Shown here piece by piece: positions 1 through 14,919 of a stretch of 20,601 bases of DNA; the first letter of the stretch is position 1; the number at the start of each line of letters is the position of its first letter. The stretch lies in the IMG/VR virus record IMGVR_UViG_3300035698_004444, positions 1 to 20,601 of that record; one strand, given 5' to 3'. The stretch comes from a virus. The notes under the pieces were generated by a model that saw nothing but the letters and a program-made list of their open reading frames with translations, was not told the origin of the DNA and did no database searches. The position numbers and the translations under genes were made by a program.

Positions 1-1730
1 GGGAATGTTCCTGTTATTTCCGCAAAATCCGAATGTACAGCCGTGTCGCCGCGCCCTAACATACCAATCCCATTATACCCACATGAATAAACCGTTCCTG
101 CGTCGTCTATCGCATAAGCACAAACGGAGTTATAAGTCCTTCGACTACCGAACGCAAATATTTTTGCCACGGTAATGGTGCTCGTGACAAAGTATTCAAC
201 GCGTGTGAAAACTGATCTATTGACTAAATCATTATGGCCACCTGATCCATAAGTGGCATTAATGCCGCATGAATATAGCCAGCCATTTGTTGCTAGTGCA
301 TATGCCTGGCCGCTTGTGAAAACCAATTCTGCTATCGTCACGCCAGCGGGTAGCGCCGGGGAAAATCCAGCCAACCCAACGGCGAGCGTAGATGGAGAAA
401 TTTTACCCCTACCAAGTACACCATTAGCCCCATATCCCCAACTAGCTATTTTTCCGTTTGATAGTTTAACCATCATATTTGCACCAGTGATCGATTCACC
501 ACGGTTTTTAGGAAATGAAGCCACCGTAACTACATCGCTTTCACCTGATTGGTTTAAGATCACCCAATTAGTGCCATCATCACGCACCATTAAAAACTGA
601 CCATTGTTTACAATGCCATCAACCAATGCACCACCCTGGCCATATTGTTTCAATGGCTTTGCCCCGGTTCCGTCGTTCAGTGTATTGGCCCCGGTAGATC
701 CTGCAGCGTGCGCTTTAATATTATAGAATTCTGTTTGTACATTGCTAGCCACCGTGAAGGCCGGCACCGTTCCTGCTGTATTAAAAACAGTGATTTCGTT
801 ATCTAATATATCGAATAAGTCTTCTTTTGTGGGCACCTCGTCATTGTTTTCCCATCCGGTTGTATAGGGATCATTTGGCACTGACTGATCAGCGCTGAAT
901 GTGTTTGCCGTTGCAAGGCCAGGCACCACCAAATTGTCTCGACTGGTTTGCTTGTTGGCCAAGTCTGCCAGGTTTTCTGTTGTGACCATATCACCGAAGC
1001 CGGCACCTGCTGCGCCTTTCTGTGCAAGCACATCCCAATAAGTTACATTCGGCGGTGTGTTGCCTGTCGTGTCACCTTTAGCCAGGTAAGATGAACCACC
1101 CGACTGCACCGCGTCATTTTGCACGTAAGCTGTGCCGCCAGCGTAATCACCACGCCAATTGATTTTTGCGACATTCGCCGAAGCTGCAGCAGCGGTTGCT
1201 GCAATCGCAGCTGCAGTGGCCGCGTCGGTTGCTGTGTCAGCATCGGCAGCTGCCAACAACAATGCTGCAGGATCTAATAAGTCAGAAGTTTCTAAGCCGT
1301 CGGCGCCAGCATTCCAAACAATTGCACGACTGGCCACCGGGGCCGGAAATGTCAAATCAACGCCTGGCATTACTTCTGAAAATGCAAAAACTTTTGATAA
1401 ATGATATTGCAACTGCTGCAGCATAAGCACTGTATTGTCGAGATCATCGTCCAGCACTTCTGCAATCAGTGCACCATTTGTTTGATAATCAGTTAATCGT
1501 CTGAAAGTGATATCGCGGAAGATCTTGATTTCTGTCAGATTGGCAGGGGCCGGCGTGATGTTGATCGATCCCGCATTGTCACCAATGCCTGACGCCGTGA
1601 ATGCAGCATTAACGCCATCAACCGTGACCGCTAGATCATCGATACTTAACGCCCTAAATGGGAATGTGAAGTCTTCGGTTATCCCGTTACCTGTATATTT
1701 GATAAAAGGTGTTTGCACTTGTACTGTCAT
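1..1730 (-). CDS. Tail fibre protein with T7 gp17-like N-terminus and RCC1-type repeats (3' end outside window)
   Basis: The frame is open from the ATG at 1730 to base 1, giving 576 codons with no stop, so the C-terminus lies beyond the left edge. GAGGA sits 7 bases before the ATG, and only 14 bases separate it from the large terminase stop. Residues 1-105 resemble the T7 gp17 N-terminal domain that anchors fibres to the tail (KYTGNG, DFTFPF, then an IFRDITFRR strand). Residues 145-190 are Ala-rich and probably form a coiled stalk. Residues 192-238 look like a small carbohydrate-binding-type module (W192, GDTTG, YWDVLA, KG). From about residue 400 there are RCC1-type propeller repeats with the [WC]G.N/A.G.LG.G signature at W431, C488 and C550, spaced 57 and 62 residues. 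The likely role is host receptor recognition. Anchor homology is strong; the receptor is unknown. Confidence 0.9.
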   Translation of the reverse strand, partial: MTVQVQTPFIKYTGNGITEDFTFPFRALSIDDLAVTVDGVNAAFTASGIGDNAGSINITPAPANLTEIKIFRDITFRRLTDYQTNGALIAEVLDDDLDNTVLMLQQLQYHLSKVFAFSEVMPGVDLTFPAPVASRAIVWNAGADGLETSDLLDPAALLLAAADADTATDAATAAAIAATAAAASANVAKINWRGDYAGGTAYVQNDAVQSGGSSYLAKGDTTGNTPPNVTYWDVLAQKGAAGAGFGDMVTTENLADLANKQTSRDNLVVPGLATANTFSADQSVPNDPYTTGWENNDEVPTKEDLFDILDNEITVFNTAGTVPAFTVASNVQTEFYNIKAHAAGSTGANTLNDGTGAKPLKQYGQGGALVDGIVNNGQFLMVRDDGTNWVILNQSGESDVVTVASFPKNRGESITGANMMVKLSNGKIASWGYGANGVLGRGKISPSTLAVGLAGFSPALPAGVTIAELVFTSGQAYALATNGWLYSCGINATYGSGGHNDLVNRSVFTRVEYFVTSTITVAKIFAFGSRRTYNSVCAYAIDDAGTVYSCGYNGIGMLGRGDTAVHSDFAEITGTF

Positions 1731-3757: not shown

Positions 3758-6223
3758 TTATTGGCCAAATGCGCCGGCAAAATCCGGTGCACGATCCGGC
3801 GCACTTTCGCCAGGGTTCCACCAGTATTTCGTGCCATAGTATTTGTAAGAATTAGATTTTACTCGATTCAAATAGCCTGGTGACAAACTTTCTTGTAAGT
3901 CATCAAGCACTAAATGCCGAACCGCTGCCCTGGCATACCATAAATTGACAAAAGGCGTATTAGATCGGCCGAACCTTACCAACTCGGCCCCCATGTTTGA
4001 TCGTTCGCCACGTAAAACCTGGCCAGCATTTCCGATCGTTAAGTCGGCCGCGTCAACAACACTGCCAAACACCGGCCCAACTAAGCCGCCATAATTAGAT
4101 TGACCGCCACGCCCTTCACCACTTAGGCCAGTATAAAGGATATCGCCGTATATTCCAAAGCCGCCGCCCTGGGCCATCGCTTTGCCCCAAAATTTTGGAT
4201 CTGTCATATCAGCTGGATCACTACCAACGGCCAGCGATTTAAGCTGCGTCGATAATGCACCAAAGCCAACAAGGCCAACCATTAACCCGACACCATACCC
4301 AGTGCCACCACTTTCGCCATTGTAGTCAAGTGCGCGACGTATATGACGATTAGCCATTGCCAGTGGAAATGATTTGAATAAGCTTAAATGGCGCATGAAT
4401 TCGCCTGATAGTGTGCCTTTTTGTGTGCCGCCGCCAAGACTTGCACGTGTTGTGAGATCCGGCGTTGTGATTGCATATTCTGATTCATCAACAATAAAGC
4501 CAAGCAGCCTGGCCACGGCTTCATCGCGCATTCGATTTGGATCTACATCTAACCCGCTAGACTTGCCAAACTCAAACAGCACGTGATCAGGAATGTTGCG
4601 AATTGAATCCGGTGTTAGCATCTTGCTGCCGCGCCAGTCTTCGGCGATTGCCTTCTGCCATACTTTGTATGTATCGATCGTCACGCCTTGAAACTTCAAA
4701 CGATGCCTATCTTTAACGTTTAAATTTTGCCACGGCGTATCTTTCATTTTACCAAGCGATCCCATCATTGAGATCTGAAAACCGCGTTTTAGCGAATCAG
4801 TCCACTTGTTGATTAATGAGAGTTTATTTGTAGCATGTGTGAGTTTTGACGTCCATCCCTGGGCCATATTGCCGTCAGCGAACCGTGACATATCTTGGAT
4901 AATTGAATCAGTCACCAGCCCTGTTACATTTGCATAGTGTGTGTAATCTTTACCAAATGCTTTGATTGACGTGGCCAGCGTTCTAAAAATAGGCAAATTG
5001 TGGTATTTGCTTGTCGCCATTAGCGTTGGAATATCATTGATAGAACTCAATATCACGCCCTGCAGTTTATTAGCTACCGTTAAATTGCGAAGGCCCTGGT
5101 TAATTTCTGCCATTTTCGGGCTTACGGCTTGATTATTTTCGTTAGTCAGTACGCGATAAAGCGAATTAAGATCAGCATAAGCAGCGCCAACCAATGATAT
5201 TTTTCCATCGTGCTGCAGTGCCATATCATGAATCAACTGATAACCAGCTTTTGAGTTTGGGCCGAGTTCCTCAACCACGCCAATATTACGACTTAGTGCA
5301 TTTACATGGCCCTGCATTGAATCATATAACGAACCTTTACCAAACGATTCATGATAAGCCAGCCAGGCGCTATCGTCTTTAAAATGCAGTTGACGTGACT
5401 GGCTGCCACGATTAGCCAGTGACGATCCAAACTGCACCTTGCCTGGTTCAAGTTTATTCAAGCCACCAGTGGCAAGCGTTTGATACACTTCACCAAGCAT
5501 TTTATTGAATTCAACATCGCTCAATCGTTCGCCCATGCCGTCCACATAGCGACTTCGATCCAGTTTGTTGCCAATGGCAGCCACCCATTGTTCAGGCCCC
5601 GCTTTTAAGATCCGCACCTGATCGTGTGATTGTGGTATGTAGCCATAATCAAGCTTTCCAATATCGCCGCCGCTTCTATTAAAACGCTGCCGCATTTTCT
5701 CGATCGTTTCTAACCAGGCTTTTGCACCTTTCTTTGCCACCGGGTTTTTGCTATCACGGCCAAATATTTCGGTGATAAAGTCGCGGTTTGATTTTGGATT
5801 GTCTAGTAAACCAAAGAATCTAGGTTCAGCTGATTGGATTGCATCAAACATCAAACTAAAGTTTTCATGCGCCACGCCGTTCACATATGCACTCGCCTGG
5901 TTTAGTATGCGCTCAACAGCATTGGCCCCCGTGGTGCCCTGGTTTGTTTGTTCTGTAAAGCGTTGACTAAGTTTTCCCTGGGCTACAATGCCAAGCGCAA
6001 CCCGCTGCGCCTTCATTTGGGTGTCTGCAATAAACTGTTTTGCGCTTGCTTCTGCTGCTGCATTTAATCGATCTGACATACCCATGCCTTGCCAGGCGTT
6101 TGGATCCTCTTTGGCGATCCTGGCCATGTTGTCACGGATCCGCTTTTCTATGCCTTCGGCTTCACCTGTTTTAAGTTTACGGCCAATGGCCTGGCTTACT
6201 GCGTCGATGCAATCTTTTTTCAT
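3758..6223 (-). CDS. Large internal virion / DNA ejection protein
   Basis: An 821-residue protein between the polyvalent ejection protein and the terminase genes. The N-terminus (CIDAVSQAIGRKL, then KRIRDNMARIAKEDPNAWQ) and the C-terminus (LWYARAAVRHLV, then SPGYLNR and a YWWNPGE...RAPDF tail) match my memory of a widespread family of large phage internal proteins with no known enzymatic motif. It is mostly helical, with one clearly hydrophobic Gly-rich segment at about residues 642-661 (GYGVGLMVGLVGFGAL) that could enter a membrane. With its two upstream neighbours it probably forms the internal core that leaves the capsid with the DNA and helps build the channel across the host envelope; this is inferred from position. 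Its ATG overlaps the previous stop by one base (TAATG), and AGGACGGG lies just upstream. Confidence 0.75.
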   Translation of the reverse strand: MKKDCIDAVSQAIGRKLKTGEAEGIEKRIRDNMARIAKEDPNAWQGMGMSDRLNAAAEASAKQFIADTQMKAQRVALGIVAQGKLSQRFTEQTNQGTTGANAVERILNQASAYVNGVAHENFSLMFDAIQSAEPRFFGLLDNPKSNRDFITEIFGRDSKNPVAKKGAKAWLETIEKMRQRFNRSGGDIGKLDYGYIPQSHDQVRILKAGPEQWVAAIGNKLDRSRYVDGMGERLSDVEFNKMLGEVYQTLATGGLNKLEPGKVQFGSSLANRGSQSRQLHFKDDSAWLAYHESFGKGSLYDSMQGHVNALSRNIGVVEELGPNSKAGYQLIHDMALQHDGKISLVGAAYADLNSLYRVLTNENNQAVSPKMAEINQGLRNLTVANKLQGVILSSINDIPTLMATSKYHNLPIFRTLATSIKAFGKDYTHYANVTGLVTDSIIQDMSRFADGNMAQGWTSKLTHATNKLSLINKWTDSLKRGFQISMMGSLGKMKDTPWQNLNVKDRHRLKFQGVTIDTYKVWQKAIAEDWRGSKMLTPDSIRNIPDHVLFEFGKSSGLDVDPNRMRDEAVARLLGFIVDESEYAITTPDLTTRASLGGGTQKGTLSGEFMRHLSLFKSFPLAMANRHIRRALDYNGESGGTGYGVGLMVGLVGFGALSTQLKSLAVGSDPADMTDPKFWGKAMAQGGGFGIYGDILYTGLSGEGRGGQSNYGGLVGPVFGSVVDAADLTIGNAGQVLRGERSNMGAELVRFGRSNTPFVNLWYARAAVRHLVLDDLQESLSPGYLNRVKSNSYKYYGTKYWWNPGESAPDRAPDFAGAFGQ

Positions 6224-9200
6224 TATCCCGTCCTATTAAAACAAATAACAGCGGCATTAAACGCCTGGCTTTCCAGTTCTGCTTCGGCCACTGCGTCGTC
6301 AGCAATTTCGATCGCTTCTTTTACTGTCACTTCGCGGCCATCATCCATCGTGTATTTCATGTTTGGATTAAGTTCTGCCACCGCGTCAGCTGCTTGCATT
6401 TCAGGGGTTCCAAATAATTCGGTGTTACTTGGTGCCTCGTTTTTCATGCGTTGTGATTCAACTGAATCGGCGATAAGATCTTGCGCCAAAGGTGGCGCGT
6501 CGTCAAGCAGTTGGCCTTGCCGTGGATCCCCTAAGTCATCAACCGAGTTCACAAACTGATTGATCATATCTGCGATTCGTTTTGGCGCCCTGGAATTTTC
6601 CTGTAAACCAATCAATAAATTGTTTAATTCAGGTGTCATTTCAAAGTCAAACATGTTTTGCTGCGCCAGGTATTGTTCAACACTGTAACCTTTTGCCCGC
6701 ATATCTGAAAATTCACGCACGGCTTTTACCAGTTTAGGTGCGATATCAATCGGATATCTACCACCATCGCTGATCATTTCACGCAGCCTGGCCACTGCAG
6801 GTGCGGCCCTTAACATGCCATTCATAATGTTTTTGATGTTGGTGTCTGTACTTTCTGCCATCATGCCAACCACTTCACTATCGCCATAAGCTTTGGCAAA
6901 CACTGCATTTTTAATACGTGTTTCACCTTGTTGTGATAACTTGCCATCAGGGCCGATCATCGCCCCCTGTTCTGTTGGGGCTACCGTGTCATTCATAAAG
7001 TTTTTAACAAAAATATTACTTGCTCGAAAATTGATTGTACCGTCATCGGCAGCCACCATGCCATCAAGACTGTTAATTCTGCCGGCATCAGATCTTGCCT
7101 GTTCTACCACTGACATTGTGGCCACCCCGGCTTCGTTGGCTAATCGTGCAAATTCTGCGCGATCTGCATCGGCATTGCGCAAGCGCACCAGGATAGGGTT
7201 TTTTAATTGGGATAGTTCAGTCTGATCAAGGCCAAAACGTTTGGCATTATCATTCAACCATTCGCGATAACCTTCCGCTTTGCCGCCTTCATAAGCCCGA
7301 CGTAGTGCAATTGTTCGCGCGTTGCCTGATTCCACGATGCCGTCAGTGCCAACAATAGGGGCGCCGTCCGATATCTTTGCCGATTCTGCCAACAATTCAG
7401 GATTGATGTTGTTTGCAATGCGTGTGATCTGCGCCTCGCTTGCATCCCGGGTGCGATCACGTGGCTGCAATTCAGCTGGGAAATTTGGATTTTTTGCCAG
7501 GTTATTGTCGTGCGATGAAATCAGTGTAGAATCTTCAACTACGGCGAATTGAGTTTCAACAGCATCACCTCTTTCTGTGTATGATGTTGACTTGTGCCCC
7601 ATAAGGTTTTTATGTATAATATCCGTGAAAGGAGTATCAATAATGAATTTCCCACCTGACACTAAACTATTTGATGTTGAAGGCGTGCCCGTATCTTTAG
7701 ACAAAGATTGGGTTTGTTTAGCCTGGGATGGCCCCGAATCACGTCCATTTAACATAGGATCTGCCAGGCGCAATGGCACTTTAATATCTGAACGTGCTTT
7801 CAATGAATTAGTAACTTCTGCCCAAGCAGCATCATAGATTTTAATTTGTGCTTCGCGTGATTTCTTTAAAATTTCCACTTCTTTTTTAGTAGGTTTACGG
7901 CCTGTAGCTTCTAGTTCGCCCTCTAAGGCGCGTGTAGTTTCATAGATTTTATGGGCTTCATCTTTTGCTTTCAACATTTGCGGGAAGTTGATCTGCAATT
8001 CTGCCACCTGTCCATCGCCTAAATCAATATTCATTTTAATATCGCGATAACCGTCGTCACTCACCGGTTTTGAATCAGGCTGCAACGCATTGCGCAGCTT
8101 TTTCAATTCGCCGAATTTATCCTGCGCACCAGCCAGGGCGCTTTGCGCTTCGTCAAGCCCTTCAATCACGATCGTCGCACGATTAAGATCTTTGATTTTT
8201 GTTACATCGCCTTTATATTCGGTAATTATTTTTTCAGTCGCGCGATCAACCCCTTTTAATTCATCAGGAATTAACGGCTTTTGTGTGATCCCGGCTTCCG
8301 CTAGTATCGCGTTAATACCATCATCAAACTTTTGCTTCACTGCTGCAGCTGCTTCGTATTGCTGCGCTAGATCCTCGATAAATTGTTCCTGCAAGTCAAC
8401 ACGTTCGGCCAGGTGATTGCGCACGGTGTTGCCAGCATTATCAACAGGCACGCCATTTAATGCAGAATCAAGGCCGTCAGATAACACCTTGTCACTATAT
8501 GGCTGCTTGCCATTCTCATGCTGAATAATGGCTGCAGTAATCTTTTTCAATGTTTCAGGATTGTGCAAATTGATTTGGGTTTCACGTGAAACGCCAAGCG
8601 CTTTGGCCACAATGCCAGCATAGGCGCCTGTATCATTTTCGCTAGGTGGTGCCCATCGATTAATGATTTCATCAACAGTATTTAAGCCGTGTTTATCCTG
8701 GTAAGTAATTAAGTTTTTACCAAGTGCACGGATCCCCGATTGTGGGGTGTCAAACGCCGCAAAACGCTCGTCGTTGCTTTCAATCTGCCCACGCCATTGC
8801 GTGTTATCTGCCACAATATTGCCAGGGTTATTATTGCGAATACCACGTGATTCACGAATGAATGTTGCGCCCTGTATATTTTGATTCACATTAACTTGCT
8901 CGCCTCTTGCTAGCTGCATGATCGTTTCTGCTAGCGCGTCCTGGTGGATCTTATTTGATTTACCATCAACCGGAATGCCTGGTCCCGTTTCATTTTGCGC
9001 GTCGTTTGCTTTGCTTTCAACTAGCGCAGCATCAACCATATTGCGTGCGCCAGGGCCACGCGCTAAACCAAAGAATGCAGCCCCTAGAAGGGTGTCGATC
9101 GTCACTGCAGTGGCATCAAATGCGTTGTATTGCTGTGCCTGGGCTTCATAGCCATTGCTTGACAATAATTCTTTTGTGCCTTTACGCGACGCAACGCCTA

Positions 9201-9777
9201 AACCAACATTGACGCCAACGGATAGGCTAAAGTCTGCGATCCAGTTTTTAACGAATCTTGCTGCCGGTATAGTGGAACCAACGCCCAAAACTGCAGCATC
9301 GATCAACCCTTTTTTGGCAGCCGTTGATTCGTCGATGCCTTCATCTTGTGCTAACAGTTTGCTTGAATCGTAAGCCGGGGCACCTGCAAACATACCAGCC
9401 ATAAGCGGGCCACCTGCTGCTGCACCCATCGCAGTGCGTGGCAAGATATCAGCCAAAGGGCCAAGCACCTGACCAGCCATGCCGGTTGTTTGTGGATCCA
9501 CTTGTAATGGTTTAATTTTTTCAATCAGATTGACTTCGCGTTCAGTTTCGCGCTTTTCTCTTTCAGCGTCCGGCAAATGAATTTCGCTGCCACCAATGGC
9601 GCCGCCGATCTTGTCAAGAGTATATGCGCCCTGCATTAAACCCGATTTTGTACTGTCGTAAATTTGGCCGCCTAAGTTTTCAGTGAATGAAGGTTCCGGC
9701 GCTTCTGTTTCTAGCTGCATGGAATCAGCCATGTTTTTTATTGACGTGATATCAGTGACACCATTTAACCATTTCAT
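6223..9777 (-). CDS. Polyvalent ejection protein: transglycosylase-like, RelA/SpoT-like and DdrB/ParB-like domains
   Basis: A 1184-residue protein at the T7 gp16 position. Residues 105-245 hold several hydrophobic Gly/Ala-rich stretches. Residues 305-440 look like a peptidoglycan hydrolase domain (GIRNNNPGNI at 312-321, then FDTPQSGIRAL), as expected for an ejected protein that locally opens the cell wall. Residues 505-625 look like a RelA/SpoT-type nucleotidyltransferase fold: KIKDLNRATIV with D530, DDGYRDI with Y577, VAELQI with E593, and KDEAHKIYE. A polar linker (about 665-728) leads to residues 730-900, which match the DdrB-like ParB superfamily domain (TERGDAVETQFAVVE, LQPRDRTRD, GIVESGNART). 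The C-terminus (NPNMKYTMDDGREV...AAVICFNRTG) resembles tails of phage large polyvalent proteins. The start overlaps the preceding stop as ATGA. Structural role is likely; activity of the two inner domains is inferred. Confidence 0.85.
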   Translation of the reverse strand: MKWLNGVTDITSIKNMADSMQLETEAPEPSFTENLGGQIYDSTKSGLMQGAYTLDKIGGAIGGSEIHLPDAEREKRETEREVNLIEKIKPLQVDPQTTGMAGQVLGPLADILPRTAMGAAAGGPLMAGMFAGAPAYDSSKLLAQDEGIDESTAAKKGLIDAAVLGVGSTIPAARFVKNWIADFSLSVGVNVGLGVASRKGTKELLSSNGYEAQAQQYNAFDATAVTIDTLLGAAFFGLARGPGARNMVDAALVESKANDAQNETGPGIPVDGKSNKIHQDALAETIMQLARGEQVNVNQNIQGATFIRESRGIRNNNPGNIVADNTQWRGQIESNDERFAAFDTPQSGIRALGKNLITYQDKHGLNTVDEIINRWAPPSENDTGAYAGIVAKALGVSRETQINLHNPETLKKITAAIIQHENGKQPYSDKVLSDGLDSALNGVPVDNAGNTVRNHLAERVDLQEQFIEDLAQQYEAAAAVKQKFDDGINAILAEAGITQKPLIPDELKGVDRATEKIITEYKGDVTKIKDLNRATIVIEGLDEAQSALAGAQDKFGELKKLRNALQPDSKPVSDDGYRDIKMNIDLGDGQVAELQINFPQMLKAKDEAHKIYETTRALEGELEATGRKPTKKEVEILKKSREAQIKIYDAAWAEVTNSLKARSDIKVPLRLADPMLNGRDSGPSQAKQTQSLSKDTGTPSTSNSLVSGGKFIIDTPFTDIIHKNLMGHKSTSYTERGDAVETQFAVVEDSTLISSHDNNLAKNPNFPAELQPRDRTRDASEAQITRIANNINPELLAESAKISDGAPIVGTDGIVESGNARTIALRRAYEGGKAEGYREWLNDNAKRFGLDQTELSQLKNPILVRLRNADADRAEFARLANEAGVATMSVVEQARSDAGRINSLDGMVAADDGTINFRASNIFVKNFMNDTVAPTEQGAMIGPDGKLSQQGETRIKNAVFAKAYGDSEVVGMMAESTDTNIKNIMNGMLRAAPAVARLREMISDGGRYPIDIAPKLVKAVREFSDMRAKGYSVEQYLAQQNMFDFEMTPELNNLLIGLQENSRAPKRIADMINQFVNSVDDLGDPRQGQLLDDAPPLAQDLIADSVESQRMKNEAPSNTELFGTPEMQAADAVAELNPNMKYTMDDGREVTVKEAIEIADDAVAEAELESQAFNAAVICFNRTG
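7592..7620 (+). promoter_or_regulatory. Sigma70-like promoter candidate on the plus strand inside the polyvalent gene
   Basis: TTGTGC at 7592-7597 and a perfect TATAAT at 7615-7620 are separated by 17 bases, the optimal spacing. Only the TTG of the -35 hexamer matches consensus, so strength rests on the -10 hexamer. It points away from every other gene in the window and lies just upstream of a good ribosome binding site and a 64-codon frame. A chance match inside coding DNA cannot be excluded. Confidence 0.3.
7643..7837 (+). CDS. Candidate antisense small gene (64 codons), hypothetical
   Basis: The plus strand opposite the linker and nearby coding part of the polyvalent gene carries a 64-codon frame starting with ATG at 7643. 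AAAGGAG at 7628-7634 is eight bases before the ATG, and a promoter-like TTGTGC/TATAAT pair lies immediately upstream. The predicted product starts MNFPPDTKLFDVEGVPVSLD and continues with KDWVCLAWDGPE and GSARRNG; it has balanced composition, reads like a small soluble protein and is not recognised. The frame remains open further upstream to 7577. Because antisense frames without stops are frequent in this DNA, the frame alone means little; the aligned promoter, ribosome binding site and start are what make it worth listing. If real, its transcript would be antisense to the ejection protein mRNA. Confidence 0.25.
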   Translation: MNFPPDTKLFDVEGVPVSLDKDWVCLAWDGPESRPFNIGSARRNGTLISERAFNELVTSAQAAS

Positions 9778-11834
9778 TTTTTAATTACCCCGCTAACACT
9801 GCCATCGTTAATCATTAACATGATCGGCTTGCCGTCTTTACCCGCTTGCACCTTGCTGCCATTCATGATCACGTATGCGTCATCAAGGCCAGGCGCTTGC
9901 ATGATTGGCATGTCTTCAAGCACTGATTTAGCATAACCACTGCTTTTGGCCGCTTCTGTTAGCGCTAGATCTAATTTAGTGTTGAACGTGTCTTCACCCA
10001 TACCATACGGGGTGATGACCTTCACACCATTCACTTTAGTCACGCCACCTGTTGCCAGGGCGATCGCTTTTTCTGCCAGTTCTGTTTTCGCTGCACTCTT
10101 GTCACCTGCTTCGTGTCGCACTTCCTCGCTAGCTGCCATGCCAGCATAGATCGCTTTAAACGCATTAAATGCTTGAATGCGTTGTGGTGATCCGTTCGGA
10201 ATTGCATTGCCGATAAGATTTTCAAACTCCGTGGTAAAGGCTTGTTCTGTTGGCATGATCACTGATTTATCGGCCAGGATCCTTTCGCCATCTAAGATGG
10301 TTTTCGCCACGTCACGGCCATCGGTGCCACGCAGATCATGAAACTTTGCCATGCCGGCTAGCATTAACATGCCTTTATCCGCAGCCACCGCTTTTAATGC
10401 AGATCCGTAAGCGTTTGAATCAGGCGATGTTTGTGCCAAAACGCCCAATATGGCCAGTTTTGTTTCATCATCAGCTTTACTTAAAACGACTTTCATGGAT
10501 TCTGCTTCTTGTGGTAGCCACGGGTTTAGTGTCACTTCATGGCCATACCTGTTTTTCAATGCCTGTACTGTTGTGAAACGGTCTTTCATTTGGCCAATAA
10601 TCCCCGATTGTCCAGTCGCCATGCCTTGAATATCAAGCGGCTGCACTACTTCACCAGTTCTGTTTTGATTGAAAATCAACGGATCCTCTTTCAACAGTTT
10701 CACATTGGCATTTATTGCAGTTGCTATGCGTTTGACGTTCGCTTGCTTTTTAAGATCGCCACCATTGTTGGCAAGATCTTGTTCTTTACCTTGTAAAAAC
10801 TGCATTTGGTTTTCGATCGGCTGCCTTAATACTTGTTGAACTTCGTTTTCGTCTTTAACAAATTGCTTAAACTCTTTTTCAAACGGCGTGCCTTTGACTG
10901 TCTGATCCCACGTAAGCCACTGCTGCGGCGTCGCAGGAACCCCGCTGGCCACTTGCTTGCTAATCTCGCCGATCGCACGTTCAGCGGACGCGTCTGCTTT
11001 GTCAGCGGCATGTAGGGCGCGATTATCTAGCTTATCTATATGTGAATCTAATGATTTTAGTAAACTGGTCCGTTTGCTTGCATCCAGCTTATCGTGATAA
11101 AGGCCATCGGGTGCCGTCAATTCATGGCGCATGGCTTGCATAGCGATTCGATCGTCAGATACGGCCATCACTTGCTGCGCTGCCGAGTTATACCAGTTAT
11201 TATCTTTAAATGTCTGCATTGTTTTTTGCAATTGATCGTCAGGCATCCCCGCTTTTTTGGCCAATACTGTCAATGTGTCTGCCCGGGTGTTTAAATTCTC
11301 GATATCTGCACCAGGCAAGCCGGCAAGTTTTTGCATCTTTTCAAGCGCTACACCGAATTGATTTTTATAATCCGTTTGCATCGCCTTTGTTGACGCCCTT
11401 CCCACGGCAGCTTTGGCGCTAAAGTCCACACGTTGAATGCCTCGATTATAGGTTTCTGTTAATACTCTATTTCTGCCCGACGGTTTAAATTTTGGCCCGT
11501 CCTGTAATCGCTTTTGCAATACTGTTTCAGCCTCGTTGTAATGCACGGCACCCGACGCGATATCGTTTTCAAGCGTTGTCGTCGTTTCTTTGACATAAAT
11601 TTCATGATCTAGCGTTGCATTAGCTGTTTGCGCCTGTTCTAAATCATCATCTAGCTTTTGTTTTTGTGCTGCTTCTACGGCATTTTGATGATTGACGGCA
11701 AGCCCTGCATTAGCAACAACTACCCCGGCCGTGGCTGTGGCATTCTCAACTTCACCAGCACGGCCAACAGGCTGCGCACCCTGGAACACTTTAATATCAT
11801 TACTTGCGCCTGGTCTTATGTTAGCGATTTTCAT
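9774..11834 (-). CDS. Internal virion core protein, gp15-like
   Basis: A 686-residue, highly charged and mostly helical protein with no signal peptide, no clear membrane segment and no enzyme motif that I recognise. Its place between the gp14-like gene and the large transglycosylase-bearing gene, and its size, match the T7 gp15 position; gp15 forms part of the internal core and of the tube ejected across the periplasm. Long helical stretches rich in Ala, Lys, Asp and Gln (for example residues 45-95 and 265-300) fit a tubular or coiled assembly. The start overlaps the preceding stop by one base (TAATG), and the 3' end overlaps the next ATG as ATGA, so it is probably translated by coupling. The function is assigned from gene order, not from a conserved motif. 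Confidence 0.68.
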   Translation of the reverse strand: MKIANIRPGASNDIKVFQGAQPVGRAGEVENATATAGVVVANAGLAVNHQNAVEAAQKQKLDDDLEQAQTANATLDHEIYVKETTTTLENDIASGAVHYNEAETVLQKRLQDGPKFKPSGRNRVLTETYNRGIQRVDFSAKAAVGRASTKAMQTDYKNQFGVALEKMQKLAGLPGADIENLNTRADTLTVLAKKAGMPDDQLQKTMQTFKDNNWYNSAAQQVMAVSDDRIAMQAMRHELTAPDGLYHDKLDASKRTSLLKSLDSHIDKLDNRALHAADKADASAERAIGEISKQVASGVPATPQQWLTWDQTVKGTPFEKEFKQFVKDENEVQQVLRQPIENQMQFLQGKEQDLANNGGDLKKQANVKRIATAINANVKLLKEDPLIFNQNRTGEVVQPLDIQGMATGQSGIIGQMKDRFTTVQALKNRYGHEVTLNPWLPQEAESMKVVLSKADDETKLAILGVLAQTSPDSNAYGSALKAVAADKGMLMLAGMAKFHDLRGTDGRDVAKTILDGERILADKSVIMPTEQAFTTEFENLIGNAIPNGSPQRIQAFNAFKAIYAGMAASEEVRHEAGDKSAAKTELAEKAIALATGGVTKVNGVKVITPYGMGEDTFNTKLDLALTEAAKSSGYAKSVLEDMPIMQAPGLDDAYVIMNGSKVQAGKDGKPIMLMINDGSVSGVIKK

Positions 11835-12304
11835 TATTGAACCCCTTGTGACGTGCGCCAGCCTTTATAAATGCTCGCACCACCTTGAATTAATGTTGAA
11901 CCTGCATTGAGCATTGAGGCGTTTTTTGCGTTGCTTCCCGCTGTTTCAAAATTATCGGCCTGGCTATTTGCTCGCCGCTGCGCATTGCCGCCGTTCATTA
12001 TCTCGATCAGTGCGTCTTCCTCGTCGTTTTTCTTAATTTTGCTGTTAATTTCAACCGACGTGCCGGCATCAACATCGACACCGCTTGCCGATAGATTTGC
12101 CCGGGCTTCACCTTGCTTTTGTCGCGTGGCTTTGCGAATACGATCAGCACGCACTTTGGCTGCGCTTGCTTCCTGTCTGCCTTCCTCTCGCTGTTGATCT
12201 GCCTGGTATTCATATTGCGCGGCCTGGGCATTACCAGCCTGAATCGTGCTATATGCTGAAACGGCCGTGCCGATTGCTGCGACTGCCAATGCTGGATTAC
12301 ACAT
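11834..12304 (-). CDS. Internal virion protein, gp14-like
   Basis: A 156-residue protein starting MCNPALAVAAIGTAVSAYST, a short hydrophobic helix behind a Met-Cys start typical of gp14-type internal virion proteins, which insert into the outer membrane during DNA ejection. The rest is a Gln/Glu/Arg-rich helix (about residues 25-75), a Gly/Ser/Asp turn region (ASGVDVDAGTS) and a second Ala/Asn-rich helix. The frame can be extended to 12490, but the extension has poor composition and lies within the upstream gene. GAGAGGA precedes the ATG at 12304 at a good distance, and this start gives an eight-base overlap with the stop of the acetyltransferase-like gene. Assignment rests on the N-terminal pattern plus gene order. 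Confidence 0.75.
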   Translation of the reverse strand: MCNPALAVAAIGTAVSAYSTIQAGNAQAAQYEYQADQQREEGRQEASAAKVRADRIRKATRQKQGEARANLSASGVDVDAGTSVEINSKIKKNDEEDALIEIMNGGNAQRRANSQADNFETAGSNAKNASMLNAGSTLIQGGASIYKGWRTSQGVQ

Positions 12305-12761
12305 GTTTAATTCCTCTCTCGAAATACTGAAAACCAAGTTTACAATGTTCTTTTTCATTGATCTTAAAGCCAAGCCATTTAAGCCATGTTTTTGCGACGG
12401 CATTGTCTTTATGCACATAATTGAATAGCTTTTTAGGGTATAACTTTTGCATTTCAGCAACTTCACCCCTGCAGCCGCGCACAAATTCACGCGAAAACTG
12501 CATGATCTTATCTGTTGCTAGCATCCACACCACGCCTTCCCCTTCTTTGTGTGTAGGTGTTACCCCGTATATCAAAGCGGCTTCATCATCGATCACGGCC
12601 ACCCGGCACCAAGTTGAATCTTGATAGCCTTCAATCACCATGATCGCTGGCCGAATGTCTAATTTATACGCGTGTAGTTCATCGATATCGCCCTGGCGTA
12701 AATTATGCGCCACGTGGCGTGCGTCTTCGATTGTTGCTTCACGTATGGTGATGTTATCCAT
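12297..12761 (-). CDS. GNAT acetyltransferase-fold protein, gp13-like
   Basis: A 154-residue protein with features of the GNAT fold: an N-terminal ITIREATIEDARHV strand-helix, a central VVWMLATDKI strand, and a C-terminal helix-loop VHKDNAVAKTWLKWLGFKI that matches the usual N..a..wL.klGF ending. A GNAT-like protein between the tail nozzle gene and the gp14-like gene is the usual T7-like arrangement, where gp13 is needed for assembly of the internal proteins; whether it acetylates anything is unclear. The frame extends to 12821, but the ATG at 12761 fits the fold start, and its first codons overlap the nozzle gene stop by eight bases. GAAGGG lies about 11 bases upstream. Confidence 0.8.
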   Translation of the reverse strand: MDNITIREATIEDARHVAHNLRQGDIDELHAYKLDIRPAIMVIEGYQDSTWCRVAVIDDEAALIYGVTPTHKEGEGVVWMLATDKIMQFSREFVRGCRGEVAEMQKLYPKKLFNYVHKDNAVAKTWLKWLGFKINEKEHCKLGFQYFERGIKHV

Positions 12762-14919
12762 TAACAGTGACCCTTCGCATGATTGACTGGATGTGCATAG
12801 GCAACGGTTGATCTTGTACAATCGTCACGACACCTGGACTTTCTTTATCCCACCCGGCTAGTTTAACTTTTTTGATGCCGGTGTACGGTTCTATTACCTG
12901 ATCCATTAGATCGCCAAATCGCCTGTATGGAATGCGAACCCCGTTAATGGTGCACCCTAGCGTATTTTGTACTTTTACCACGGCTTCCGAAGTGCGCACG
13001 TTTTTCCCTTGACTAGATCCTGTTTGGCCACTGACTTCAATTGGTAGCGTTTTGATTGTTGTTACATAAGGCAGTCCGATTGTAATGCTACTAACCGTGT
13101 AAGGTAAGGTAATTTGACCGCCACTTACAATAAAACTGCCATAGACATAATTATCACCAACGGCCACCACGGTTTTGCCGTTCAAATGGTCTAATCCAGT
13201 CCACACCGTTGCAGGAATCTCGCTTGTGCCTTCGATCGCGCTATCCATCAATACGCCTGGCTTAAAGTATTCAATATATTTTTTGATCACGCCATTAATA
13301 TCACGATCCACCACAATCCAAGTCTGCTGGATCCCTTCGATCGGTATAGTGCCAACTGATTTATAATCGCCGTCCGTTTGCTGCCTGGCCCAACCGGTTA
13401 CATTTTCAGATCTATCGATCGTAATTGTCGCCATATCGCCAGTAGCAAGCACGGCATACATTAAGCGATCAGGATCCTTTTGGAAACTAATATCAGTAAT
13501 GCCTAAACCTGCTATGTGATCCGCTATTTTTGATACATCGATCACGTCAAAGCCATCAATTTCAATCTTATAGCTTGCCGTTAATAATCGTTTTTTTGAT
13601 CGGCTTACATAATAAACTTCGTTATCAATTTTAATCGGCCTTACATCGCAGCCGCCATCGTCGGTTTGCGATCTGATTTGCACGTTTGTTGGTGTGATTG
13701 GCTTTTCTACGCCGCCACTAATAGAGAACACACCGCCGGATCCGATCGTCAGCATTTGACGGATATCGATCATATGTACGATCTGATCTTGTGACGATGC
13801 AATGTTAAACAAAAAGCCGTCATCATCATTGGTGCCCATTTGGAAATTAGTCAATTCACCTGTACGTGTGCCAGTAAATGATTGCGGGTATCTTGTTGAA
13901 CCACCTAAAAACCAACGCTGCTGATGTAGCAACCCGGTGCGCGGATAGCCAAGCGTTGCACTCCATATGCTGCTATTCAATGACCAGGCTAATTTTGGCG
14001 ATGCCGCTGCCGACGTTAGTGATTCTTTTACAATAGCCGTGACCACCTGATCTGTACTAATGCCATTAATCAATAAAAGGCCACCATTAACACGAACATA
14101 TTTGCCAATATCTGCGGTGCGCCACCCTGCTGCACCTAACGTTAAATTCACTTGTGTGCCAATCACTGCAGCGGTTGAAGGTGTGCATGTTGTTTGCGGT
14201 GAAACGTCTAGTTTCCAATCACCTGCAGAAATCGCCACGTTATCAAACGCCATCGTCACATTGACGTCGATCGATGTTGTTGAATTAACTGCAGTGACTT
14301 CGCCCAGGCCTTTACCCGATACTAAAAAGCGGCCCACGTCACTGGCCAAAAATGTCGCCCCCACAACGGTGGCCGTGCGTGCACCAACTGCAACACTGGA
14401 CAATGTGAGGGCTTCCGCTGGCACTAGCCCTAGTTCATCAAACGGTTCGACTTTAATCGGGGCATTAGCAATAAACCAATCAATATCGCCAAAACGTTGC
14501 AATCGCTGCGGGTATACCGTTTCGCATTCAATGAACATGGTGTCTGCGGATTGTTGAAAAGATAACTGACGCAGCACTGTTTCACTGTATGGCGTAACAA
14601 TTTCATACGGCACGCCTGGTGATGTTTCTAATTGCGCATTATTTTTAAATACACGCATATATAAATGACCGAATTCAAGCATATAAGATTGATCGGTATT
14701 GTAAGAAAACGGCACTAGAATCGTGTCTTTATCATCAAACTTGGCAGCTGCAGCAAATAAAGAACCGTCGCGATTGACTGCGCCGCCATAAATTAACGGG
14801 TATCCGTTTGTGATTTCCGCTGCAGCATTGTTATAGCGATCAATGTCTACCCTGCCGTATAATTTCGGGCTAAACTCGCCGGCGGTAAAGTTTGTTTTTA
14901 ATGCGCTAATATTGGGCAT
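12754..14919 (-). CDS. Tail tubular protein B / tail nozzle
   Basis: A 721-residue protein directly after the tail tubular A gene. The N-terminus (FTAGEFSPKLYGRVDIDRY, then NGYPLIYGGAVNRDG) is the conserved opening of podoviral nozzle proteins; the family forms the distal end of the short tail tube and closes it before ejection. The rest is beta-rich with repeated Thr/Val/Gly strands, as expected for a propeller and platform. It is close to the T7 gp12 length of about 794. The start overlaps the previous gene by 14 bases and the end overlaps the next start by eight. No enzymatic domain or unusual insertion was recognised. Confidence 0.88.
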   Translation of the reverse strand: MPNISALKTNFTAGEFSPKLYGRVDIDRYNNAAAEITNGYPLIYGGAVNRDGSLFAAAAKFDDKDTILVPFSYNTDQSYMLEFGHLYMRVFKNNAQLETSPGVPYEIVTPYSETVLRQLSFQQSADTMFIECETVYPQRLQRFGDIDWFIANAPIKVEPFDELGLVPAEALTLSSVAVGARTATVVGATFLASDVGRFLVSGKGLGEVTAVNSTTSIDVNVTMAFDNVAISAGDWKLDVSPQTTCTPSTAAVIGTQVNLTLGAAGWRTADIGKYVRVNGGLLLINGISTDQVVTAIVKESLTSAAASPKLAWSLNSSIWSATLGYPRTGLLHQQRWFLGGSTRYPQSFTGTRTGELTNFQMGTNDDDGFLFNIASSQDQIVHMIDIRQMLTIGSGGVFSISGGVEKPITPTNVQIRSQTDDGGCDVRPIKIDNEVYYVSRSKKRLLTASYKIEIDGFDVIDVSKIADHIAGLGITDISFQKDPDRLMYAVLATGDMATITIDRSENVTGWARQQTDGDYKSVGTIPIEGIQQTWIVVDRDINGVIKKYIEYFKPGVLMDSAIEGTSEIPATVWTGLDHLNGKTVVAVGDNYVYGSFIVSGGQITLPYTVSSITIGLPYVTTIKTLPIEVSGQTGSSQGKNVRTSEAVVKVQNTLGCTINGVRIPYRRFGDLMDQVIEPYTGIKKVKLAGWDKESPGVVTIVQDQPLPMHIQSIMRRVTVNG

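What the first reader, a model, noticed from the sequence alone, without database searches (positions are those of the whole stretch)
7903..8265. RelA/SpoT-like nucleotidyltransferase domain inside an ejected phage protein
Residues 505-625 of the 1184-residue ejection protein show the ordered pattern of RelA/SpoT-type synthetase folds: R512-x3-K516 and EYKGD, KIKDLNRATIV (D530 at the magnesium-ligand position of RelA), DDGYRDI (G576-Y577-R578), VAELQI (E593 and Q595, the EIQ motif position), then KDEAHKIYE. The key Asp and Glu are kept. If active, the virion would deliver an enzyme that makes an alarmone-like nucleotide or pyrophosphorylates a target such as tRNA at the moment of infection. 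A non-catalytic binding role is also possible.
Basis: partly seen in the sequence, partly recalled or inferred. Interest (0 to 1): 0.75.

Follow-up and report, generated by a model that had tools for sequence, protein, structure and literature searches.

The report
Alarmone-synthetase domain in phage ejection protein
A short-tailed phage carries, inside a protein that is probably shot into the host together with its DNA, an intact-looking enzyme domain of the family that makes stringent-response nucleotides and some bacterial toxins; such domains in phage particles were known elsewhere, but this one sits in a different protein, has an unusual active-site motif and has no neighbouring antidote gene in the known sequence.

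Summary
Residues 505-625 of the 1184-aa protein (window 7903-8265, minus strand) lie in a RelA/SpoT synthetase domain of about residues 465-665 (7783-8385). The window domain alone finds the (p)ppApp-making toxin Tas1 (phmmer E=5e-9). A profile of 17 phage homologues finds Tas1 (2e-18), then RelA and small alarmone synthetases. The AlphaFold model (pLDDT 86) matches Tas1 best, and all 40 PDB hits at E<=0.001 are RelA/SpoT enzymes. K508, K516, D530, G576, Y577, D579 and E593 are invariant in all 23 domains compared, so decay is unlikely. The carrier is an epsilon15 gp16-like ejection protein (N-terminal domain, lysozyme-like domain, RelA/SpoT, DdrB-like ParB). In relatives this slot holds zeta-toxin, ADP-ribosyltransferase-like, transglycosylase, ParB or RelA/SpoT domains. 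Most likely it is an injected pyrophosphokinase acting on purine nucleotides at the start of infection; activity, product and effect are inferred. The base-recognition motif GYRDIK fits neither the guanosine (SxH) nor the adenosine (GxN) signature, so the product is open. RelA/SpoT domains in phage polyvalent proteins were predicted in 2017, and MuF-linked Apk2 enzymes have been proven: a new variant of a known kind.

The parts
6223..9777 (-). 1184-aa epsilon15 gp16-like ejection (internal virion) protein carrying the domain
   Evidence: ORF; lies between gp15-like and gp17-like genes; same cassette in Alcaligenes phage Piluca annotated epsilon15 gp15/gp16/gp17-like
8878..9777 (-). N-terminal region aa 1-300, shared with gp16-like proteins of Pseudomonas, Klebsiella, Acinetobacter and Alcaligenes phages
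   Evidence: phrog_1145 at aa 83-312; phmmer matches in L044-L047
8434..8856 (-). Lysozyme/transglycosylase-like domain, aa 308-448
   Evidence: phrog_873 'endolysin' 1.4e-60 and phrog_7182 'tail injection transglycosylase' 1.6e-20; in Klebsiella phage BUCT711 the same domain is in the neighbouring gp15-like protein
7783..8385 (-). RelA/SpoT-type synthetase domain, aa 465-665
   Evidence: Tas1 match, AlphaFold2 model pLDDT 86, pTM 0.81, Foldseek PDB hits all RelA/SpoT
8230..8256 (-). Putative ATP-binding motif K508-x3-R512-x3-K516 (syn1)
   Evidence: K508 and K516 invariant in 23/23 domains, R512 in 20/23
8179..8190 (-). D530-x-x-R533 (syn2; D = magnesium ligand position, R-A-T as in adenosine-type enzymes)
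   Evidence: D530 23/23, R533 22/23; aligned with Tas1 D-x-x-R-x-T
8035..8052 (-). G576-Y577-R578-D579-I580-K581 (syn3, base recognition); D579 invariant in place of S (guanosine type) or G (adenosine type)
   Evidence: G576, Y577, D579 23/23; K581 K/M/N/L/Q; signatures from PMC12226406
7987..8001 (-). E593-L-Q595-I-N597 (syn4)
   Evidence: E593 23/23, Q595 22/23; Tas1 has E-I-Q-V-N
7939..7968 (-). A604-K605-D-E-A-H609-K-I-Y612-E613 motif
   Evidence: A604, K605, H609, Y612 invariant in 19/19 virion proteins of A6
7672..7779 (-). Conserved but unfolded tail aa 667-702 (VPxRxADxxxNxRGxxxSxA...TGxPSTS) shared with three unrelated carriers of the domain
   Evidence: A5 alignment; pLDDT below about 50 in the second model
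7177..7572 (-). DdrB-like ParB domain, aa 736-867 (homology extends to about aa 1095)
   Evidence: PF18763 1.1e-38; homology to phage P1 DdrB
9774..11834 (-). 686-aa epsilon15 gp15-like internal virion protein
   Evidence: phrog_992 5.5e-49; matches the gp15-position proteins of L044, L045, L047
3758..6223 (-). 821-aa epsilon15 gp17-like (pilot) protein
   Evidence: phrog_684 1.8e-226; matches the Piluca 'pilot protein'

Best explanation
The domain is a catalytically competent RelA/SpoT synthetase of the fast toxin/exported type (Tas1/Apk1, Apk2, EAS), carried as enzymatic cargo in an epsilon15 gp16-like ejection protein. Steps: (1) the protein is packed in the head and leaves it ahead of or with the DNA (inferred from homology and synteny); (2) its lysozyme-like domain helps to open the peptidoglycan and the chain reaches the cytoplasm (inferred); (3) the domain binds ATP through K508/R512/K516 and R533 and magnesium through D530/E593, and moves a pyrophosphate to the 3'-OH of a purine nucleotide held by Y577, giving (p)ppApp, (p)ppGpp or both (fold and residues shown; reaction inferred); (4) a few copies draw down the host ATP or GTP pool or raise an alarmone signal in the first minutes, weakening host transcription, translation and ATP-dependent defence, alongside the DdrB-like ParB domain that accompanies the incoming DNA (inferred). 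That it belongs to the RelA/SpoT synthetases: about 0.97. That it is an active pyrophosphokinase: about 0.8. That the acceptor is a free purine nucleotide: about 0.75. That the purpose is an early action on the infected cell: about 0.55.
For: Tas1 is the only significant single-sequence PDB match (E=5e-9) and the best profile match (2.3e-18), followed by RelA and SAS enzymes. AlphaFold2 model pLDDT 86; Foldseek best hit Tas1 (1.4e-7), next the exported synthetase SaEAS, then SAS1/SAS2, SpoT and Rel; all 40 hits at E<=0.001 are RelA/SpoT enzymes. Catalytic residues invariant in 23 divergent domains across unrelated virion proteins. The Apk1 fold uses equivalent residues for ATP binding (R124/R330, E182, Q184 in SaEAS/Apk1 numbering; PMC12691689). 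In relatives the domain gene is followed by a small gene and a RelA/SpoT-type HD hydrolase (12 of 19 records), the layout of apk2-iapK-aph1, in which the synthetase is proven to make (p)ppApp and the two partners are immunities (PMC12226406): such a pairing makes sense only if the synthetase is active. Cargo logic: the same ejection slot holds other toxin-like enzymes in relatives. Dose: at the published Apk1 rate of 180,000 per min, 4-12 copies would turn over a 3-5 mM adenylate pool in roughly 1-8 min (12 copies as for phage P22 gp16).
Against: No activity, virion or infection data exist. The syn3 motif GYRDIK differs from both characterised signatures, so another acceptor, or reduced activity, is possible. 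No hydrolase of the HD_4 family is encoded in the 20.6 kb held, and no small gene lies between the flanking genes, so the producing cell would have no visible protection late in infection; the record is a fragment. Strong early depletion of ATP or GTP would also harm phage replication. The dose estimate borrows the rate of another enzyme.
Confidence: 0.68

Rival explanations
1. Polymorphic toxin of the Apk2 sort, aimed at killing: the virion delivers a lethal dose to cells that do not carry the phage or prophage, while producing or lysogenic cells are protected by immunity proteins encoded elsewhere in the phage. The chemistry is the same as in the best explanation; the purpose differs.
For: Apk2 toxins of temperate phages are bactericidal and come with iapK and aph1 immunities (PMC12226406). 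PHB04-like relatives have the same three-gene layout.
Against: No immunity gene adjacent in the window or near its closest relatives L002, L010, L011, L012 (gene lists). A phage that needs its host alive for replication gains little from killing it at injection. Whether this phage is temperate is unknown.
Confidence: 0.17
2. RNA-directed enzyme: pyrophosphorylates the 3'-CCA end of tRNA, as FaRel2 and CapRel do, and stops host translation at infection.
For: The toxSAS group contains both kinds of enzyme (PMC11782079 abstract), and the acceptor-site motif of this family (GYxDxK/M) matches neither nucleotide signature.
Against: By fold the nearest structures are nucleotide-acting enzymes (Tas1, SaEAS, SAS), with the tRNA enzyme CapRel far down (E=4.1e-3, rank 49). 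By sequence no tRNA-acting toxSAS was hit. The relatives' HD hydrolases fit nucleotide or tRNA products alike, so they do not decide.
Confidence: 0.1
3. Non-catalytic domain: a fold kept for nucleotide or DNA binding or as a structural segment of the ejection channel.
For: It sits in the middle of a structural protein, with no partner gene, and the window copy falls below Pfam detection alone.
Against: All catalytic positions are kept while the rest of the sequence has diverged to 20-40% identity, also in copies that reached the same slot by another branch (L037, L039). Most gp16-like relatives lack the domain, so the channel does not need it.
Confidence: 0.05

Closest known systems
Tas1 (Apk1), type VI secretion effector that makes (p)ppApp
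   Same: Best sequence and structure match; same order K-x3-R-x3-K, YKGDxTKIKDLxRxT, GY, E-(I/L)-Q-(V/I)-N
   Different: Delivered by a T6SS PAAR protein with a neighbouring immunity protein; syn3 is GYSGVN against GYRDIK here; here the domain is internal in a phage ejection protein
Apk2, MuF-linked adenosine 3'-pyrophosphokinases of temperate phages (PMC12226406)
   Same: RelA/SpoT synthetase domain in a phage head-associated protein; relatives of the window domain show the same synthetase / small gene / HD hydrolase order
   Different: Carrier is a MuF protein with the toxin C-terminal; here an epsilon15 gp16-like protein with an internal domain, no partner genes found, syn3 D-x-K instead of G-x-N
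RelA/SpoT domains in phage polyvalent proteins (Iyer et al. 2017, PMC5512222)
   Same: Multidomain injected protein combining lysozyme, DdrB-ParB and RelA/SpoT domains; they predict an alarmone-like shut-down of the host
   Different: [quoted passage not shown] the held text does not mention an epsilon15-type ejection protein or an active-site variant
Exported alarmone synthetases (SaEAS, VpEAS/RelV; PMC12691689)
   Same: Second-best structural match (SaEAS); no immunity gene; acts away from the producing cytoplasm
   Different: Sec-exported single-domain proteins; SaEAS makes both alarmones, VpEAS only (p)ppGpp
Bordetella phage PHB04 gp034 and relatives in IMG/VR
   Same: Homologous domain (33-36% identity) with the same GYRD motif
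   Different: Gene next to the portal gene, with a 70-79-aa gene and an HD hydrolase gene downstream

Membership tests
RelA/SpoT (RSH) synthetase superfamily | Significant sequence relationship to known synthetases | tested here: met
   Tas1 5e-9 single, 2e-18 profile; RelA and SAS about 1e-3 by profile; PF04607 in 13/17 homologues, not in the window copy alone
RelA/SpoT (RSH) synthetase superfamily | Synthetase fold | tested here: met
   Model pLDDT 86; all 40 PDB hits at E<=0.001 are RSH enzymes
RelA/SpoT (RSH) synthetase superfamily | Catalytic residues: basic ATP-binding set, Mg-binding Asp and Glu, base-stacking Tyr | tested here: met
   K508, K516, D530, Y577, E593 invariant in 23/23
RelA/SpoT (RSH) synthetase superfamily | Pyrophosphokinase activity | not testable with these tools
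   Needs purified protein
Apk (adenosine 3'-pyrophosphokinase) toxins | syn3 GxN adenosine signature | tested here: not met
   Window has DIK (D579, K581); D579 invariant across the family; signature from PMC12226406
Apk (adenosine 3'-pyrophosphokinase) toxins | syn2 R-x-T | tested here: met
   R533-A-T
Apk2 MuF toxins | N-terminal MuF domain and C-terminal toxin domain | tested here: not met
   No MuF domain in Pfam; domain is internal
Apk2 MuF toxins | Adjacent iapK and aph1 (HD hydrolase) genes | tested here: not met
   No HD_4 in the 20.6-kb record; flanking genes overlap or abut. Met in PHB04-like relatives for the hydrolase; the small gene is iapK-like by position only
Phage polyvalent proteins (Iyer et al. 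2017) | Several effector domains in one virion-associated, injected polypeptide | tested here: met
   Lysozyme-like, RelA/SpoT and DdrB-ParB domains in one gp16-like protein; injection itself not tested
Epsilon15 gp16-like ejection proteins | Homologous N-terminal region and position between gp15-like and gp17-like genes | tested here: met
toxSAS acting on tRNA (FaRel2, CapRel) | Activity on tRNA 3'-CCA | not testable with these tools
   Fold similarity to CapRel is weaker than to nucleotide-acting enzymes

The most novel reading that the evidence does not exclude
The gp16 slot of epsilon15-like ejection cassettes is an interchangeable bay for injected toxin-like enzymes (alarmone synthetase, zeta-toxin kinase, ADP-ribosyltransferase, ParB), and the synthetases in it and in related phage head proteins form a separate catalytic class (GY-x-D-x-K/M) with its own acceptor or product, used at the moment of entry without a neighbouring antidote.
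Probability: 0.3. Interest if true: 0.78.

Novelty: new variant of a known kind. Interest (0 to 1): 0.56.

Why it matters
Alarmone-type enzymes are known as bacterial stress signals, as T6SS toxins, as anti-phage toxins (CapRel) and as MuF-linked phage toxins. An ejection protein that brings such an enzyme in at time zero would turn the same chemistry into an offensive act of the virion, and a defined domain with defined dead mutants makes that directly testable. The swapping of this domain with zeta-toxin or ADP-ribosyltransferase-like domains in the same slot suggests that short-tailed phages use ejection proteins as a delivery bay for enzymes, much as polymorphic toxins are used by secretion systems. 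The invariant Asp in the base-recognition motif marks a group whose product is unknown.

Tried and rejected
Pfam, NCBIfam and PADLOC on the window protein or domain alone gave no RelA/SpoT match; the weak hits (DarA_N, V-ATPase G, TnpB, ZorA) are below cut-off and rejected as helix-composition noise. A seven-sequence alignment was too divergent for pattern scans. Both genome-contig scans found no relative; these scans rely on short patterns, so this does not show absence from bacterial genomes. One row of A3 (the PHB04 row) was typed with one wrong letter; A3 served only as a search pattern, and all structural and conservation work used A4 and A6, made from DNA references. Rejected: chance resemblance (E-values, fold), pseudo-domain (conservation), coordinate or frame artefact (unbroken ORF). 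The 70-79-aa proteins of PHB04-like phages were tested for likeness to solved immunity proteins and gave nothing, so calling them IapK-like rests on position and size. The second model, with the conserved tail included, showed the tail as disordered, so an autoinhibitory role could not be seen. A paper defining (p)ppApp-hydrolase signatures was not held. A literature search for RelV residue data gave nothing.

Full report
What was claimed. The stretch 7903-8265 is exactly those residues, on the minus strand; the plus strand is closed by stops. The window is a 20,601-base IMG/VR virus record and a fragment.

Is it real? Yes. The domain alone, by phmmer against all PDB sequences, finds one significant match: Tas1, the (p)ppApp-making T6SS effector, E=5.1e-9, aligned over YKGDxTKIKDLxRxTI(V/I) and E(L/I)Q(I/V)N. 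With 16 homologues from IMG/VR added (A4), the profile finds Tas1 at 2.3e-18 and, as the next seven hits, E. coli RelA chains and small alarmone synthetases at about 1e-3 to 2e-3. Thirteen of the 17 members hit Pfam RelA_SpoT on their own; the window copy does not. The AlphaFold2 model has mean pLDDT 86 and pTM 0.81. Foldseek against the PDB puts Tas1 first (1.4e-7), then the exported synthetase SaEAS, SAS1/SAS2, SpoT and Rel; all 40 hits at E<=0.001 are RelA/SpoT enzymes. TM-scores are moderate (0.55 by query length for Tas1), as expected at 23% identity.

Are the active residues kept? Over 23 domains (phage and bacterial, 20-42% identity to the window for the phage ones) K508, K516, D530, G576, Y577, D579 and E593 are invariant, R533 and Q595 are kept in 22. 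In the 19 virion proteins of A6, K508, K516, D530, R533, G576, Y577, D579, E593, Q595, A604, K605, H609 and Y612 are all invariant. In SaEAS the corresponding D121 is essential and R124, E182 and Q184 are ATP-binding positions (PMC12691689), with the same spacing as D530-R533 and E593-Q595.

What does it act on? Known signatures (PMC12226406): guanosine enzymes carry AVR in syn2, SxH in syn3 and IR in syn4; adenosine enzymes carry RYT, GxN and YH. The window has R-A-T in syn2 (adenosine-like), Q-I-N in syn4 (as in Tas1), but D-I-K in syn3, which fits neither. D579 is invariant through this whole group and position 581 is K, M, N, L or Q. Swapping syn motifs in Apk2 did not switch its specificity, so motifs alone do not settle the product. 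The fold is nearer to nucleotide-acting enzymes than to the tRNA-acting CapRel (rank 49). I take a purine nucleotide as the likely acceptor and leave open A, G or both.

The carrier. Pfam finds DdrB-ParB at 736-867; PHROGs find an N-terminal family at 83-312 and a lysozyme/'endolysin' family at 308-448. Related phages with annotation identify the cassette: in Alcaligenes phage Piluca the genes are noted as epsilon15 gp15-, gp16- and gp17-like, the last a pilot protein, and the three window genes 9774-11834, 6223-9777 and 3758-6223 match them in order. So the RelA/SpoT domain sits in a gp16-like ejection protein. Ejection itself is inferred from this homology.

A cargo bay. Piluca and Acinetobacter phage TPWB-05 have N-terminal region, SLT transglycosylase and DdrB-ParB but no RelA/SpoT. 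Pseudomonas phage Shamal and Klebsiella phage BUCT711 have shorter gp16-like proteins; in BUCT711 the lysozyme-like domain is in the gp15-position protein. Among IMG/VR relatives found through the gp17-like protein, the gene just upstream carries RelA/SpoT in L037 (with a weak, sub-threshold ART-PolyVal match) and L039, zeta toxin in L033 and L034 (PF06414, 7e-40 and 5e-38) and DdrB-ParB in L042. L012 has the same neighbourhood (a 693-aa gene before and a gp17-like gene after) but with ParB before RelA/SpoT, the reverse of the window. L010 has RelA/SpoT then ParB as in the window. In the tree the window domain groups with L002 (fused to a portal protein) and L010 (support 94/94), while L037 and L039 form a separate pair (100/100); the deeper forks are weak. 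The domain thus seems to have moved between virion proteins and to have entered this slot more than once.

Antidotes. In 12 of 19 IMG/VR records with the domain, all close relatives of Bordetella phage PHB04, there is a RelA/SpoT-type HD hydrolase (HD_4). Gene by gene, the order is synthetase, a conserved 70-79-aa protein, hydrolase, with overlapping or abutting starts and stops. This is the layout of apk2-iapK-aph1 in temperate phages, where the synthetase is proven to make (p)ppApp and both partners protect (PMC12226406). The small proteins have no match in the PDB or Pfam, so their role is by position only. The window record has no HD_4 gene and no room for a small gene next to the carrier; nor do the records of L002, L010, L011 and L012 have HD_4. 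All are fragments or of unknown completeness.

How it would work. P22 injects about 12 copies of its gp16 (PMC8402733 abstract). Apk1 runs at 180,000 turnovers per minute (PMC12691689). If the window enzyme were as fast, 4-12 copies would convert an adenylate pool of 3-5 mM in 1-2 fL within about 1-8 minutes, ignoring resynthesis. So a virion dose could matter without new synthesis. Against this, the phage needs host energy. Either the enzyme is slower, is short-lived, or is tuned to a smaller pool such as GTP, or its benefit (host shut-off, blocking of ATP-dependent defence) outweighs the cost. Late expression in the producing cell is also unprotected as far as seen; folding within the long chain, packaging, or the lateness itself may limit harm. 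These points are inference.

Prior knowledge. Iyer and colleagues (2017, PMC5512222) described RelA/SpoT domains in phage polyvalent proteins and MuF fusions and proposed an alarmone-like host shut-down; they also noted DdrB-ParB fused to lysozyme domains in Acinetobacter prophages. MuF-linked Apk2 enzymes are biochemically proven (PMC12226406). BFVD already holds homologues of the same architecture, for example A0A6J5KIV2 (1129 aa, 36% identity, 'DdrB-like'). My searches of open-access papers found no report of such a domain in an epsilon15-type ejection protein, which is not proof that none exists. Hence: new variant of a known kind. What is new here is the carrier, the interchangeable slot, the invariant D in syn3, and the synthetase/small gene/hydrolase operon in PHB04-like phages.

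Noticed in passing
L004 8071-10336 (Bordetella phage PHB04 gp034-gp033-gp032); likewise L013, L016, L017, L019, L020, L022, L025-L027: Conserved three-gene operon next to the portal gene: RelA/SpoT synthetase-domain protein, 70-79-aa protein (IENEGALFRGPAR...), HD_4 hydrolase; resembles apk2-iapK-aph1. gp034 and gp033 are annotated hypothetical, gp032 as metal-dependent phosphohydrolase.
   Followed up: partly
L033 3389-6715 and L034 3394-6672: Zeta-toxin kinase domain (PF06414) in the gp16-position protein of related podovirus contigs.
   Followed up: partly
L028 4966-7671: RelA/SpoT domain and a polyvalent-type inorganic pyrophosphatase (InPase, PF18823) in one 902-aa protein.
   Followed up: no
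L011 5839-7929: RelA/SpoT domain in one open frame with a topoisomerase IB domain, just downstream of a portal-like gene.
   Followed up: no
L002 2447-6970 and 8313-10202: A 1507-aa open frame joining a portal protein, the RelA/SpoT domain and a weak, sub-threshold metallopeptidase match; a NUDIX domain fused to DUF2213 is encoded close downstream and could act on the alarmone.
   Followed up: no
window 7672-7779 (aa 667-702); also L010, L011, L012: Tail motif VPxRxAD...TGxPSTS follows the RelA/SpoT domain in four otherwise different proteins, is predicted disordered, and has no known role.
   Followed up: partly
window 6223-6300 and C-termini of the gp16-position proteins in L033, L034, L037, L039: By eye, these cargo-bearing gp16-position proteins end in a similar acidic helix followed by a Cys near the C-terminus (ICFNRTG, CMGRAA, CMRGKGV, CMGA, CIGGRNA): possibly a packaging signal.
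   Followed up: no
L005 4723-5511 and 5731-6555 (Photobacterium sp. DA100, pDA100): Two tandem unannotated RelA/SpoT synthetases with apparent signal peptides, resembling the exported RelV/VpEAS type, and sharing the GYRDLK motif.
   Followed up: no
L006 5863-6800 (Deinococcus sp. QL22 plasmid): Stand-alone RelA/SpoT synthetase followed by a 78-aa protein in an overlapping frame, possibly a toxin-antitoxin pair.
   Followed up: no
window 3-1730, minus strand: Tail-fibre-like protein cut by the window end; the N-terminus looks like a T7 gp17-type anchor and the later part like RCC1 repeats, by eye only.
   Followed up: no
window 12297-12821, minus strand: Small protein between tail and internal virion protein genes; at the same place relatives have an annotated acetyltransferase. 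No Pfam match here.
   Followed up: no
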